A stretch of 64,000 nt of DNA. Source: Gammaproteobacteria bacterium (GTDB taxonomy: Bacteria; Pseudomonadota; Gammaproteobacteria; Nevskiales; Nevskiaceae). Under the pieces are notes generated by a model. The model was not told the origin of the DNA, did not search any database, and was given only the letters and a program-made list of their open reading frames with translations. The position numbers and the translations under genes are program-made. Position 1 is the first letter of the stretch, and each line of letters opens with the position of its first letter. Below are positions 6,319-13,146 of the stretch, piece by piece. Location: positions 1-64,000 of the forward strand of contig JAPLSA010000006.1 in NCBI GenBank assembly GCA_026398815.1. The letters run 5' to 3'.

Positions 6319-7500
6319 TCAGGCTTTCAGCAATTTCTTGGCGAGACTCCAGCGATGCACTTCGCTGGGACCGTCGTAGATCCGGAACGGGCGGATGTCG
6401 CGGAAAATGCGCTCGACGACGGTCTCGCCCGTCACGCCACTGCCACCCAGCACCTGCACGCTGCGATCGACGACGGCCCAGGTCTTCTCCGAACAGATCA
6501 CCTTGGTGCGCGACGATTCGAAGTTCGCGCGCGCGGCACCGCCTTCTTCACCCGCGTCGGCGCGATCAAGCACTTCGGCGCAATAGCCGATCGCCATCCG
6601 CGCCAGATGCAGATCCATGTCGTTGTCAGCCAGCATGAAACCGACACCCTCGTGATCCCCAAGCCGCTTGCCGAAGGCCTGGCGTCGCCGGGCGTAATCG
6701 AGCGCCACGTCGTGGGCGCGGCGCGCCGCGCCAAGCCAGCGCATGCAATGGGTCAGACGCGCCGGCGCCAGCCGCACCTGGGCGTAGCGAAAGCCCTCGC
6801 CGACTTCGCCGAGCACATCGCTGGCCGGCACCCGCAGATCATTGAAGTGGACCACGCAGTGACCGCCTGCAAAGCAGCGATCCAGGGAATCCATCTGCCG
6901 CTCGATGACGATGGCCGGCTGCGCCATGTCGGCGAGGAACATCGTCGCCCGGCCATCTTCCAGGCGCGCCATGATGATCGCGAAGGCCGCGCCTTCGGCA
7001 CCGGTGATCAGCCATTTGCTGCCCGTGATGCGGTAGTGATCGCCGTCGCGAATGGCCGTCGTCTGCAGCATCGACGGATCGGAGCCAGCGCCCGGCGCCG
7101 GCTCGGTCATCGCGAAGCAGGATCGTGTTCTTCCAGCGACCAGCGGCGCCAGCCAGCGCACCTTCTGGGCGTCGGTAGCGACCGCCTCCATCAAGTGGAT
7201 GTTGCCCTCGTCGGGCGCGTGGATGTTCATCGCCACCGGACCGAGTGGCGAATAGCCGGCCTCCTCGAAGACCACGGCCTTCTCGATATGGCTCAGATGC
7301 AGGCCGCCGAGCGCCTTCGAGGCATGCACGGTCAGCAGGCCAGCGTCCCGCGCGCGGGCGATCAGCTCGGCGCGCAGCGCGTCGGTCGGGCCATGGTCGG
7401 TCTGCCGCGGATCGCGCTCGTAGGGAATCACCTGCTCGGCGATGAAGCGGCGGGTTCGCGCCTGCAGTTCGAGCAACGCGGGAGAGAGCTGGAAATTCAT
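6319..7500 (-). CDS. ACAD10/11-like acyl-CoA dehydrogenase (LvaC-like)
   Basis: This 393-residue flavoprotein has the acyl-CoA dehydrogenase fold: helical N-terminus, middle beta domain with CFAMTEPAPGAGSDPS, and a C-terminal helical domain. Where ordinary family members carry the catalytic Glu in a YEGT motif, this one has IYDGPSEVH (Asp near residue 376), as in ACAD10/11-type enzymes. Those enzymes act with an APH-type kinase domain on 4-hydroxyacyl-CoAs, as LvaC does with LvaAB in levulinate catabolism. I start it at MNFQLSPALLEL (7500); the frame is open upstream without a matching N-terminus. It is last in the operon, 103 bases after the small protein. Substrate unknown. Confidence 0.88.
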   Translation of the reverse strand: MNFQLSPALLELQARTRRFIAEQVIPYERDPRQTDHGPTDALRAELIARARDAGLLTVHASKALGGLHLSHIEKAVVFEEAGYSPLGPVAMNIHAPDEGNIHLMEAVATDAQKVRWLAPLVAGRTRSCFAMTEPAPGAGSDPSMLQTTAIRDGDHYRITGSKWLITGAEGAAFAIIMARLEDGRATMFLADMAQPAIVIERQMDSLDRCFAGGHCVVHFNDLRVPASDVLGEVGEGFRYAQVRLAPARLTHCMRWLGAARRAHDVALDYARRRQAFGKRLGDHEGVGFMLADNDMDLHLARMAIGYCAEVLDRADAGEEGGAARANFESSRTKVICSEKTWAVVDRSVQVLGGSGVTGETVVERIFRDIRPFRIYDGPSEVHRWSLAKKLLKA

Positions 7501-7603
7501 GGTCGACGGTCCGATTGGAGCGGCGGCCACGATAGCAGCGCGGCCCGGCTGCCCACCACGAACCGGGTGGCGGCCCTCCACTGTGCGGTGCGCATCGCGG
7601 CAC

Positions 7604-8140
7604 TCAGCGCACCAGCAAGGTCTCCACTGCCGGCAGGCCGGATGCCGGGCCTTCCCAGCCCTGCAGCGCCACCCAGGCACGCTCGCGCAGCAGCTGCGCT
7701 TGCGCGTGGTCCATCACGGCGGTGTTGACGGCCCGCAGCGCGGCGTCATCGGCCGTTGCCGCAGCGGCGGTCACCAGTGCGCCGACCGCCGCCCGCAGAC
7801 GCTGGTTGGCCGCTTCCAGTGCCGGCGGTTCGACGCCGGCCCCGGCGAGCACGCTGCGTCCATCGTCGGCAGCAGCAGTCAGCGCAGCGAGCGCCGCGCC
7901 GGCCTCGGGAATCCTTGCCGCCTGCGGGGCCAGCTGCGCGGCCAGCTTCAGGTAGCTGTCCAGCTCGACGCAGTCATAGCGGTATTGCAGCGGCAGGCGC
8001 TGCGCCATCAGATGGAGCATGCCGACGATCAGCTGACCCTGTTCCTGTGCCAGCTTGTTGGCCGGATCGACCGCCGGCAGCACGACATCGGTCAGCGACT
8101 TGATCAGCGCCGGAATCTGGAACGACGGCCGCAATTCCAT
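7604..8140 (-). CDS. Uncharacterised 178-residue kinase-partner protein, copy 1
   Basis: Function unknown. The protein is helical, Ala/Leu-rich, with no signal peptide or metal motif. The most conserved part against its paralogue at 11412-11948 is the N-terminal third (VVLPAVDPANKLAQEQGQL aligned with VVLPAIDLANTLAIEQGKL) plus the C-terminal LLRER...LQGWE segment. Its start overlaps the stop of the upstream kinase gene by one base, so the two are probably translationally coupled. In the levulinate pathway a small protein (LvaB) is encoded next to the kinase LvaA and is needed for its activity. By position this could be a functional counterpart; sequence homology to LvaB is not established. 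Confidence 0.8.
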   Translation of the reverse strand: MELRPSFQIPALIKSLTDVVLPAVDPANKLAQEQGQLIVGMLHLMAQRLPLQYRYDCVELDSYLKLAAQLAPQAARIPEAGAALAALTAAADDGRSVLAGAGVEPPALEAANQRLRAAVGALVTAAAATADDAALRAVNTAVMDHAQAQLLRERAWVALQGWEGPASGLPAVETLLVR

Positions 8141-11411: not shown

Positions 11412-11948
11412 TCAGCGGGCCAGCAGGTCGACAAGCGGCGGCACCGACTTCGGGTCCGGTTCCCAGCCCTGCATCAGCAGCATCGAGCGCTCGCGCAGCA
11501 GCTGTTGCTTCGACATCGCCAGCACCGTCGCCTGCACGGCACCGCAGCTGCCGGCGTCGCCATCGCGATGGACCGCGCTGACCAGTTCGCCGGTGGCGCG
11601 CCGCAGCGCGCGGATGCCGGCTTCAAGCTCGGCCGGCGACGCGCGGGCCGCTTCGAGACTCTGGCCGGCGGCAGCGGTGGCGTCGTGCAGCGCGGCCAGC
11701 GCTGACTGGGTGTCCGTACCGCCGCGGGCCTCGCGCGCCAGCTGCTCGCTGGTGGCGATCAGCCGAGCCAGCTCGTCGCGGTCGAAGGCGAACTGCACCG
11801 GCAGCTGCTGCGCCAGCAGCGCCAGCAGGCCGATCGACAACTTGCCCTGCTCGATCGCCAGCGTGTTGGCCAGATCGATCGCCGGCAGCACCACTTCGCT
11901 CAAGGCCTTGATCACCGCCTGCAGCTGGATCTGGGGACGCATCTGCAT
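11412..11948 (-). CDS. Uncharacterised 178-residue kinase-partner protein, copy 2
   Basis: Same length (178 residues) and layout as the protein at 7604-8140. The conserved core is an N-terminal VVLPAIDLANTLAIEQGKL segment and a C-terminal LLRERSMLLMQGWE segment; the middle has diverged. No catalytic motif is visible. It begins one base after the stop of the second kinase gene, repeating the kinase-then-partner order, which supports an obligate functional pair. Most likely helical and cytoplasmic. Function not recognised. Confidence 0.8.
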   Translation of the reverse strand: MQMRPQIQLQAVIKALSEVVLPAIDLANTLAIEQGKLSIGLLALLAQQLPVQFAFDRDELARLIATSEQLAREARGGTDTQSALAALHDATAAAGQSLEAARASPAELEAGIRALRRATGELVSAVHRDGDAGSCGAVQATVLAMSKQQLLRERSMLLMQGWEPDPKSVPPLVDLLAR

Positions 11949-11949
11949 G

Positions 11950-13146
11950 TCAGCGGCGCTCCTCGATGAGGCTGCGCATTTCCTCGAGCAGCATCGGCCC
12001 GATGCCGATCAGCCAGGTGACGAGCACGTCCTGGTGGGTCTTGCCGCCGGCAGCGGCGCGGTAGCCGGTGGCCAGGCTCAGCGTCGCCATCATCCAGGCG
12101 TTGTAGACCTTGTACCAATGCATGGTCCGGGCATCGACCGCATAGCCAGTGGCCTGCTCGTAAGCGGCAAGGAACGCTGCTTCCGGCATCAGGCCGGAAG
12201 TCAGGAAGGTCTTGCCATCCTCGGCCAGCGCGCCGAACGCGCGGCTGGTGGTCCAGGCCAGGTCCTGGTGGCGATCGCCGATGCGGCCCAGTTCCCAGTC
12301 CAGCCAGGCGCTGATCCGGCAGTCGGGCTCGGTGAACAGGAAATTGCCGAGGCGATAGTCGGAATGGACGATCACCGCACGATCGAGCACTGGCAGGTTC
12401 GCACGCAGCCAGGCCTCGGCCAGCCGCATCAACGGCACGTCTTCATCGGAATCCTCTTCCCAGACCCGTGCCCACCAGTTCACGCCCCATTCGGCGCACT
12501 GCGTGGTGCCGGCAGCCGGGATGTCGAAGGCATCGAGTCCCTTGTCGCGGAAGTCGGCGGTGTGAATCTTCGCCAGATGCTCGACGAACTGCGGCGCCAG
12601 CTGCGCGCGCAGGGCGGCCGGCAGCTGCGTGCCAAGGCCGCTGACGCCGCTGGCGGCGGCGCTGGGCTTGGTGACGCCGGGCGCGAAGCCATAGATCAGC
12701 GCCGGATACGGCAGGTACTCGCCTTCTGGATCGCACCAGTAGACCGGCGGCACCGGCACCACGCCTTCCATCGCGCGGATCAGCTGGAACTCGCGCTTGC
12801 GGCTGGTTTCGACGATCGATTCGCTCGGCTCCATGCGCAGCACCATCGGCGTGCAAGACAGGCCGTCCTGCGGGTGCTGCCATTCGAGCGTGAACGCCAT
12901 CTGCAGCTTCGACGCGCCGCCGGACAGCCAGCGCGCATCACGCAGTTCGTACGGCGTGCTGAGTTCGGCATCGAGCAGGGCGCGGACGCCGTCAACCAGC
13001 GTGTCCAGCGCCAGCGGCTTGAAGCCGGGGCCGGCACGGCGCTGCATCTTGCGGGTCAGGATGCGGTCGATTTCCCGTTCGGTTGGAAATCGCTGGCGCA
13101 GCGCGGCGATCCAGTCCGCAGGGGGCTGGCGCTTGTCGGGATACAT
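11950..13146 (-). CDS. APH-fold phosphotransferase, copy 2
   Basis: A 398-residue paralogue of the kinase at 8140-9342, with LSGGASKLQM (75-84), MVLRMEP and DWE (283-285) conserved. The catalytic loop reads HSDYRLGN (261-268) instead of HGDYRLGN; the key Asp and Asn are kept, so activity remains plausible. The start chosen is ATG 13146 (MYPDKRQPPADW), which has a GAGGAG ribosome-binding site; earlier in-frame starts would run into the operator. It is first in the seven-gene operon, divergent from the TetR gene. Confidence 0.87.
   Translation of the reverse strand: MYPDKRQPPADWIAALRQRFPTEREIDRILTRKMQRRAGPGFKPLALDTLVDGVRALLDAELSTPYELRDARWLSGGASKLQMAFTLEWQHPQDGLSCTPMVLRMEPSESIVETSRKREFQLIRAMEGVVPVPPVYWCDPEGEYLPYPALIYGFAPGVTKPSAAASGVSGLGTQLPAALRAQLAPQFVEHLAKIHTADFRDKGLDAFDIPAAGTTQCAEWGVNWWARVWEEDSDEDVPLMRLAEAWLRANLPVLDRAVIVHSDYRLGNFLFTEPDCRISAWLDWELGRIGDRHQDLAWTTSRAFGALAEDGKTFLTSGLMPEAAFLAAYEQATGYAVDARTMHWYKVYNAWMMATLSLATGYRAAAGGKTHQDVLVTWLIGIGPMLLEEMRSLIEERR

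What the first reader, a model, noticed from the sequence alone, without database searches (positions are those of the whole stretch)
6319..13146. Duplicated kinase/partner/acyl-CoA dehydrogenase operon resembling LvaABC and ACAD10/11
Two APH-fold kinases with intact catalytic Asp, each followed at once by a paralogous 178-residue protein, sit in one operon with an acyl-CoA dehydrogenase whose catalytic Glu motif is IYDGPSEVH, the ACAD10/11 variant. In established systems (Pseudomonas LvaA-LvaB-LvaC; mammalian ACAD10/11) a hydroxyl on an acyl-CoA is phosphorylated and the dehydrogenase then eliminates phosphate. The duplication and the added AttH/CrtC-like pair are not part of those systems. 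I infer an undescribed route for removing a hydroxyl from a lipid, isoprenoid or steroid-type acyl-CoA.
Basis: partly seen in the sequence, partly recalled or inferred. Interest (0 to 1): 0.85.

Follow-up and report, generated by a model that had tools for sequence, protein, structure and literature searches.

The report
Tandem ATP-driven dehydration operon, bacterial
This stretch of DNA encodes two complete sets of enzymes that probably remove a hydroxyl group from an oily molecule by first tagging it with phosphate and then expelling the phosphate, each set with a small helper protein of unknown kind.

Summary
Seven co-directional genes (6319-13146, minus strand) encode two APH-type kinases, each followed by a 178-residue protein (p178), two beta-rich proteins and an acyl-CoA dehydrogenase (ACAD). 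The ACAD is ACAD10/11-LvaC-like: it has Arg-8-HCMR and Asp (not Glu) at the catalytic position, and splits from ordinary ACADs. The wider reading changes. The "AttH/CrtC-like" pair are DUF7064 proteins. Their profile, and A's predicted fold, match 25-phosphosteroid lyase, the phosphate-eliminating partner of a steroid kinase. The operon is best read as two tandem kinase-helper-lyase triads (ATP-dependent dehydratases) plus an ACAD. Both triad types occur singly elsewhere: 11 A-type loci (8 contiguous) and 1 B-type locus. Of 85 genomes of the order, 20 of 21 with p178 have DUF7064, against 4 of 64 without. p178 shows no significant relation to LvaB/DUF6285 and no known fold. Kinases beside this ACAD elsewhere belong to another clade, so feeding of the ACAD by kinA/kinB is unproven. 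The substrate is unknown; oxygenase genes recur nearby. New variant of a known kind.

The parts
11950..13146 (-). kinA, APH-type kinase (398 aa), first gene of triad A
   Evidence: PF01636 E 6.1e-22; solved relatives Rv3168 3ats (name recalled, consistent), ACAD11 kinase domain, 9fsg; catalytic HSDYRLGN
11412..11948 (-). p178A, kinase-linked helical protein (178 aa), unknown family
   Evidence: no Pfam match at E<=0.01; AlphaFold mean pLDDT 91.9, nearly all helix; no PDB fold at E<=0.001
10438..11376 (-). DUF7064-A, predicted phosphate-eliminating lyase of triad A (312 aa)
   Evidence: DUF7064 E 6.1e-18; profile A5 hits 25-phosphosteroid lyase E 2e-9; Foldseek TMq 0.67-0.70 to 25-PSL chains; RDHSWGTR with Asp174
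9356..10324 (-). DUF7064-B, predicted lyase of triad B (322 aa)
   Evidence: DUF7064 E 1.6e-11; GDRSWGPR motif; close relative beside kinase and p178 on a Rhodococcus opacus plasmid; not folded here
8140..9342 (-). kinB, APH-type kinase (400 aa) of triad B
   Evidence: PF01636 E 8.1e-24; different sub-clade from kinA
7604..8140 (-). p178B, kinase-linked protein (178 aa) of triad B
   Evidence: 42% identical to p178A; overlaps kinB by 1 nt
6319..7500 (-). ACAD10/11-LvaC-type acyl-CoA dehydrogenase (393 aa)
   Evidence: best PDB hit ACAD11 (2wbi) E 2e-52; Arg-8-HCMR and Asp in YDGP; HCMR rows split from ordinary ACADs with support 100/100
13346..13987 (+). divergent TetR-type regulator (213 aa; a longer start at 13262 is possible)
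   Evidence: PF00440 E 5.5e-10; present in the 5 syntenic loci
13232..13246 (.). palindrome TTGACANNNTGTCAA, possible TetR operator
   Evidence: present in 6 of 6 syntenic loci compared; one place in the genome with up to 1 mismatch, but the reversed control pattern also gives one; a -35-like TTGACA lies in it (13246-13217, minus strand; such matches expected 0.6 times by chance)
15976..23972 (-). linked block: ordinary ACAD, enoyl-CoA hydratase, Y_phosphatase3 protein, 2Fe-2S reductase, AlkB-like membrane hydroxylase (label by recalled histidine motifs only), MalT/LuxR-type regulator
   Evidence: hydroxylase to ACAD also beside the operon in L049 and L051, in part in L048; hydroxylase, reductase, hydratase and regulator beside a triad in Zhongshania L092

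Best explanation
The operon encodes two tandem ATP-dependent dehydratase modules. In each, an APH-type kinase, working with a helical helper (p178) that almost always accompanies it, phosphorylates a hydroxyl group of a hydrophobic (isoprenoid- or lipid-like) alcohol. A DUF7064 lipocalin-like lyase related to 25-phosphosteroid lyase then eliminates the phosphate to leave an alkene. An ACAD10/11-LvaC-type enzyme at the 3' end probably does the analogous elimination on a 4-phosphoacyl-CoA, as a later or parallel step. A divergent TetR protein probably controls the operon. Shown by computation: gene content, families, lyase fold and motif, ACAD signature, conserved linkage. Inferred: every catalytic step, the helper's role, the order of steps, the substrate.
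For: The DUF7064 profile finds 25-PSL at E 2e-9 and 5.7e-8; the second, product-complex entry 9g4c, has Asn in place of the motif Asp. The predicted DUF7064-A fold matches 25-PSL first (E 2.9e-12, TMq 0.69). The same genome has another kinase followed directly by a clear 25-PSL relative (E 2.1e-44). p178 is directly preceded by a kinase in 63 of 65 cases. DUF7064 lies within 4 kb of 23 of 35 p178 places in the order, and 20 of 21 p178 genomes have DUF7064 against 4 of 64 others. 3 of 3 plasmid records with p178 hold the triad. Of 21 loci with one gene of each kind, 11 are A-like throughout (8 contiguous) and 1 B-like throughout. The kinase/phosphoester/alkene chemistry is published (PMC8449060; PMC7411048, passages).
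Against: Single-sequence likeness of DUF7064-A to 25-PSL is weak (E 0.23), and DUF7064-B has none. The relation rests on a profile and a fold, and that fold also houses Diels-Alderases and a hydratase, so the reaction could differ. 18 of 56 p178 loci show no DUF7064 (some contigs are short). 24 of 59 DUF7064 places in the order have neither a kinase found within 3 genes nor p178 or DUF6285 within 4 kb. The kinase of the C19 pair had no PDB hit at 1e-5. No substrate is known. The co-occurrence test does not correct for relatedness. Oxygenase neighbours differ from the anaerobic steroid route.
Confidence: 0.66

Rival explanations
1. One reading: an LvaABC/ACAD10-11-like route. Both kinases phosphorylate a hydroxyacyl-CoA and the operon's ACAD eliminates the phosphate; the DUF7064 proteins are accessories such as isomerases or hydratases.
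For: The ACAD has the full phospho-eliminating signature and follows p178B in the window, L048, L049 and L051. Orthologues of this ACAD sit next to a kinase in 7 of 18 other loci fetched, and in 1 more the kinase is two genes away. p178 and the ACAD co-occur (13 of 21 against 12 of 64 genomes, p 5e-4).
Against: None of those ACAD-adjacent kinases lies in the p178 kinase clade. No ACAD with the signature was found in the 50 loci L053-L102, and L050 has the operon without it. Linkage with DUF7064 is much stronger. LvaB/DUF6285 is not found.
Confidence: 0.18
2. Phosphate as a handle rather than a leaving group: the kinases mark a terpenoid or steroid alcohol, and the DUF7064 proteins catalyse a cyclisation, isomerisation or hydration, like other enzymes of this fold.
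For: Foldseek also returns CghA, Fsa2, Phm7 and kievitone hydratase. A Y_phosphatase3 gene occurs in 17 of 56 loci and could remove the phosphate.
Against: 25-PSL ranks first by fold and is the only PDB family found by the profile below E 0.3, with its motif kept.
Confidence: 0.1
3. The kinases are aminoglycoside- or other small-molecule phosphotransferases, with co-located but unrelated lipid genes.
For: APH fold; weak NCBIfam APH(3') hits (29 and 32 bits).
Against: Scores are far below the 205-bit cut-off. Linkage to lyase, beta-oxidation and oxygenase genes recurs across phyla.
Confidence: 0.03

Closest known systems
25-hydroxysteroid kinase + 25-phosphosteroid lyase of Sterolibacterium denitrificans (25-HSK, PMC8449060; 25-PSL, PDB 9fzn, 9g2i, 9g4c; the organism of the PDB entries was not shown)
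   Same: APH-type kinase (the paper calls it a phosphotransferase) plus a lipocalin-like lyase with the same Asp-x-Ser-Trp-Gly-x-Arg motif; ATP-dependent dehydration through a phosphoester.
   Different: Only distant relatives; two sets in one operon; each kinase has a p178 helper (recombinant 25-HSK was active alone); kinase and lyase genes are adjacent here, whereas no lyase candidate lay near 25-HSK; oxygenase neighbours; substrate unknown. The 25-HSK sequence itself was not compared.
LvaABC of Pseudomonas putida and ACAD10/ACAD11
   Same: ACAD with Arg-8-HCMR and catalytic Asp; APH-type kinase; small protein directly after the kinase (LvaB, 12 kDa, pulled down with LvaA as reported in PMC6692424).
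   Different: Kinase clade; p178 not recognisably DUF6285; DUF7064 lyases present; two kinases; no acyl-CoA synthetase among the seven genes. LvaA, LvaB and LvaC sequences themselves were not compared; DUF6285-adjacent kinases stood in for LvaA.
Rv3167c-Rv3168-Rv3169 of Mycobacterium tuberculosis
   Same: Divergent TetR regulator, palindrome between, kinase, then an Rv3169-family protein (PMC5340868, passages). 3ats, which I recall as Rv3168, is the best solved relative of kinA.
   Different: The paper's operon is Rv3168-Rv3169, with no helper named in the passages seen and no ACAD. DUF7064-A/B reach only 44 and 30 bits against the Rv3169-family cut-off of 150.
Kinase-p178-DUF7064 loci on Rhodococcus and Novosphingobium plasmids (L200-L202)
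   Same: Same triad; on the Novosphingobium plasmid two sets with a Y_phosphatase3 and two AlkB-like genes (AlkB by eye).
   Different: No ACAD10/11-type ACAD recognised; P450 genes near the Rhodococcus triads (annotated in one record, by eye in the other); two records carry no annotation there.

Membership tests
ACAD10/11-LvaC acyl-CoA dehydrogenases | Arg eight residues before an HCMR motif and Asp at the catalytic position | tested here: met
   Residues present; literature residues R626, H634, R637, D753 of ACAD11
ACAD10/11-LvaC acyl-CoA dehydrogenases | Groups with ACAD10/11-type rather than ordinary ACADs | tested here: met
   HCMR-type rows (29) split from ordinary rows (16), support 100/100; best PDB hit ACAD11. 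LvaC and ACAD11 themselves were not in the tree; long branches were flagged
LvaAB kinase pair | Second protein of the LvaB/DUF6285 family | tested here: not met
   hhalign probability 1.6%; DUF6285 profile on 47 p178 members: best 9.6 bits, E 0.003 for 47 sequences, which leaves a very distant relation open; DUF6285 not among the 25 of 41 Pfam families shown; none in own genome
LvaAB kinase pair | Kinase in the clade of DUF6285-adjacent kinases | tested here: not met
   all 24 p178-linked kinases used lie in one 27-row clade (98/93); DUF6285-adjacent kinases in another (100/96)
LvaABC / ACAD10-11 system | Kinase acts on the CoA ester, not the free acid | not testable with these tools
   needs an assay
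25-HSK/25-PSL-type ATP-dependent dehydratase | APH-type kinase with intact catalytic residues | tested here: met
25-HSK/25-PSL-type ATP-dependent dehydratase | Lyase of the 25-PSL fold with motif Asp | tested here: met
   profile E 2e-9, fold of A TMq 0.67-0.70, motif; single-sequence search alone fails; B was not folded
25-HSK/25-PSL-type ATP-dependent dehydratase | Tertiary steroid C25 alcohol as substrate | not testable with these tools
   needs an assay
25-HSK/25-PSL-type ATP-dependent dehydratase | Molybdenum steroid hydroxylases in the same organism | not tested
   not searched
Rv3169 family (NF053593) | NCBIfam score over the cut-off of 150 bits | tested here: not met
   43.7 and 30.1 bits
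AttH/CrtC | Pfam match to AttH or CrtC families | tested here: not met
   only DUF7064/DUF7065 at E<=0.01; likeness to a CrtC-domain protein (7a0q) is E 0.0015 by sequence and at the fold level

The most novel reading that the evidence does not exclude
One pathway that removes two or more hydroxyls from the same hydrophobic molecule with ATP, aerobically: an AlkB-like or P450 enzyme installs a hydroxyl, triad A makes one alkene, triad B a second, and the ACAD10/11-type enzyme a third elimination once the chain is a CoA ester. p178 is a new class of kinase subunit that delivers or gates the hydrophobic substrate. By homology Rv3168/Rv3169 would be a kinase-lyase pair too.
Probability: 0.2. Interest if true: 0.8.

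Novelty: new variant of a known kind. Interest (0 to 1): 0.6.

Why it matters
ATP-driven dehydration through a phosphoester is described in only a few systems (PMC8449060 discussion; ACAD10/11 papers). If this reading is right, it is a modular chemistry found in Proteobacteria and Actinomycetota, gives a predicted function to DUF7064 proteins and to Rv3169-like proteins, and names a 178-residue helper family without a known fold as the next thing to test. It moves the finding from one unusual operon to a testable rule: kinase plus DUF7064 means phosphorylate, then eliminate.

Tried and rejected
p178 as LvaB/DUF6285: no significant relation. p178 fold: Foldseek against PDB gave nothing at E<=0.001; its best PDB sequence hit was a terminase at E 0.37. 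Recent tandem duplication of one kinase-partner pair: rejected, kinA and kinB fall in different sub-clades and the two lyases are of different types. Ordinary FadE-type ACAD: rejected. Aminoglycoside resistance: disfavoured. TetR regulon: no second operator in the genome with up to 1 mismatch, though the reversed control also scored one place; in the window a second, 2-mismatch site lies beside the first, and 9 of 100 shuffles gave as many sites. Substrate from annotated neighbours: two of three plasmid records had no annotation there, the third general names. Literature searches: Rv3168 with Rv3169 (1 paper), LvaA/ACAD11, Sterolibacterium and tertiary alcohol, APH+ACAD+DUF6285 (none), 9FSG (none), 25-hydroxy/kinase/elimination, 25-HSK, phosphosteroid lyase, ATP-dependent dehydration and monoterpene, LvaA/LvaB. 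Among the titles and abstracts listed and passages read I saw no description of this operon or of p178; this covers only an open-licence library and capped lists. What PDB 9fsg and 9o56 are was not learned.
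Full report
WHAT IS THERE. The closest loci of the named collection come from assemblies titled Lysobacteraceae, Gammaproteobacteria and Nevskia (L048-L052). On the minus strand, 13146 to 6319, run kinA, p178A, DUF7064-A, DUF7064-B, kinB, p178B and an ACAD. Spacings are 1, 35, 113, 13, -1 and 103 nt. A TetR-type gene diverges upstream. Between them is an exact palindrome, TTGACANNNTGTCAA (13232-13246). 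It is present in the window and all 5 syntenic loci compared (6 of 6; these are relatives). In the genome it occurs once with up to one mismatch, but the reversed control pattern does too, so its weight rests on conservation. It overlaps a -35-like hexamer (chance expectation 0.6, so weak).

THE ACAD. Pfam gives an ACAD. The best PDB matches are ACAD11 (2wbi E 2e-52; 8v3u 1.7e-50; 8v3v 8e-50), then 4hr3 (1e-46), 1ukw (4e-46) and medium-chain ACADs from 1.5e-42. The literature names Arg626, His634 and Arg637 (HCMR) and catalytic Asp753 of ACAD11 as shared with ACAD10 and LvaC (PMC12440821; passages seen). The window enzyme has each at the same spacing (RLAPARLTHCMRW; RIYDGPSEVH). Of 40 ACADs aligned, 24 carry HC-[MS]-R with the Asp motif and 16 do not (one of the 24, L152, has HCSR). 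In a tree of 45 rows (44 different) the 29 signature-bearing rows and 16 ordinary rows split at support 100/100; the window enzyme and 21 others form a YDGP subgroup (97/81). Another enzyme, closer to ACAD11 in its motifs (GRIHHCMR, RLADGPDEVH), is on contig C8 of the same genome. By my reading of the hits with about 58% identity or more, orthologues of the window ACAD occur in 25 of 85 genomes of the order.

THE KINASES. Both are APH-type. Solved relatives in order of profile score are 3ats (Rv3168, name recalled), 9o56, 3dxp, 9fsg and ACAD11. One search classed 96 kinases of 290-500 residues and put 59 in a tree: all 35 not followed by p178, the window's 2, and 22 of the other 59 p178-linked ones drawn at random. 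All 24 p178-linked kinases fall in one 27-row clade (98/93), apart from kinases beside DUF6285 (100/96) and from those beside window-type ACADs in other genomes (5 in one 100/100 clade; L151 and L152 joined to these at 94/93). kinA and kinB are in different sub-clades. The tool flagged long branches, and two rows labelled kinase (L076, L083, first copies) are so far off that the label may be false. A kinase on contig C23 of this genome is sister to the ACAD-adjacent kinases (100/99), so the window ACAD might be served by that unlinked enzyme instead.

THE DUF7064 PROTEINS. Sequence search with A alone gave 25-PSL at only E 0.23 and a CrtC-domain protein at 0.0015; B gave nothing relevant. A 24-row profile found 25-phosphosteroid lyase at E 2e-9 and 5.7e-8, next best 0.31. 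The two 25-PSL sequences differ at the motif Asp (Asp against Asn), and the Asn form is the entry with phosphate and the alkene product; I infer that it is an active-site variant. The predicted DUF7064-A structure (mean pLDDT 90.0) hits 25-PSL first (E 2.9e-12, TMq 0.69), then Diels-Alderases and kievitone hydratase. On contig C19 the genome holds another kinase followed at once by a clear 25-PSL relative (E 2.1e-44); that kinase itself had no PDB hit at 1e-5.

LINKAGE. One scan of named genomes with the p178 profile gave 55 loci. With the window that is 56 loci and 65 p178 genes found by my gene calls and HMMs. In 63 of 65 a kinase lies directly upstream; of the other two, one has it directly downstream (L060) and one is at a contig edge (L097); in L089 no p178 gene was called although the scan matched there. 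DUF7064 is found in 38 of 56 loci, in 34 within four genes; Y_phosphatase3 in 17 of 56. In the 85 genomes of the order (own included), p178 is in 21, DUF7064 in 24, both in 20 (Fisher p 1.5e-14, not corrected for relatedness); 23 of 35 p178 places have DUF7064 within 4 kb. Of 59 DUF7064 places, 21 lie within 4 kb of p178 and 4 of DUF6285 (sought in 61 of the 85 genomes; all 4 with a kinase). Of the other 34, 10 have another kinase within three genes, 2 have one further off, 21 none within the stretch fetched, and in 1 no DUF7064 gene was called. That is 35 of 59 linked and 24 not shown to be. In 3 of 3 plasmid records with p178 the triad is complete, and the Novosphingobium one has two sets with two hydroxylase-like genes and a Y_phosphatase3 (read by HMM and by eye). 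Among 21 loci with exactly one scored gene of each kind, 11 are A-like in all three, 1 is B-like in all three (Rhodococcus opacus plasmid), 5 are A/A/B and 4 are mixed or unassigned (some p178 margins are small). In 8 of the 11 the lyase gene is next to the kinase-p178 pair, in 3 (L073, L075, L077) it is 5-6 kb away. So each half of the window operon also exists on its own, well shown for A and resting on one locus for B.

THE HELPER. p178 has no Pfam match in the window's copies. Among 47 members only scattered weak hits appear (best E 0.0011; the most shared family in 3 members; 25 of 41 families shown). The model is confident and almost all helical with no PDB relative. It sits where LvaB sits in the lva operon. 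LvaB was reported to bind LvaA (PMC6692424 citing Rand et al., passages; the original was not held). A DUF6285 profile scores at best 9.6 bits on 47 p178 members, so a very distant tie is not excluded.

SUBSTRATE. Unknown. Genes I read as AlkB-like (9 loci including the window), P450 (7) and Rieske oxygenases (6) recur, 21 of 56 loci in all. The AlkB and Rieske labels are mine by recalled motifs; Pfam and NCBIfam named no family for the AlkB-like proteins scanned (1, 3); P450 was confirmed for the one member scanned. In Zhongshania the hydroxylase, reductase, hydratase and regulator of the window's neighbouring block lie behind a kinase-p178-DUF7064 triad (L092). This suggests a hydroxylated hydrophobic compound.

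MECHANISM. Most likely (0.66): hydroxyl, then phosphoester (kinase plus p178), then alkene plus phosphate (DUF7064), in two versions, with an ACAD10/11-type elimination on a CoA ester added in one sub-lineage. Precedent: 25-HSK phosphorylates tertiary steroid alcohols, and cell extracts convert the phosphoester to the alkene (PMC8449060: abstract, results and discussion read; PMC7411048: passages). No step has been assayed for this operon.

NOVELTY. The chemistry is known; two triads in one operon, the helper family and the ACAD beside them were not described in what my searches showed (listed under tried and rejected). New variant of a known kind.

Noticed in passing
L197:5591-7820 (G000 contig C19, 49500-62000): A second kinase-lyase pair in the same genome: APH-type kinase (371 aa) followed by a 25-phosphosteroid-lyase relative (366 aa, E 2.1e-44 to 9fzn).
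   Followed up: partly
window 15976-23972, minus strand: AlkB-like hydroxylase, 2Fe-2S reductase, Y_phosphatase3, enoyl-CoA hydratase, ACAD and MalT-like regulator, kept beside the operon in relatives and in part in Zhongshania (L092).
   Followed up: partly
17 of 56 p178 loci, e.g. L056, L064, L066, L070: Y_phosphatase3-type genes recur near kinase-p178 pairs; role unknown, perhaps reversal or repair of the phosphoester.
   Followed up: no
L137, L139, L140, L141, L143, L151, L152: A second operon type: a kinase of another clade directly before the window-type ACAD, with SDR, hydratase or synthetase genes and without p178.
   Followed up: partly
L076 (CAMCBY010000071.1): Contig of a MAG titled Klebsiella pneumoniae carries a double kinase-p178 locus with the same gene order as L083; probably a binning error.
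   Followed up: no
L048, L049, L051, L053, L054, L061, L064, L065, L066, L081, L092, L093, L099: A membrane-like protein of about 246 aa (cluster 7) recurs near the kinases, often with cytochrome-oxidase-III-like genes (cluster 11, by eye); no NCBIfam match for the L092 copy.
   Followed up: no
window 24059-29758: Genes typical of valine breakdown (3-hydroxyisobutyrate dehydrogenase domains, ECH_2, aldehyde dehydrogenase), probably unrelated.
   Followed up: no
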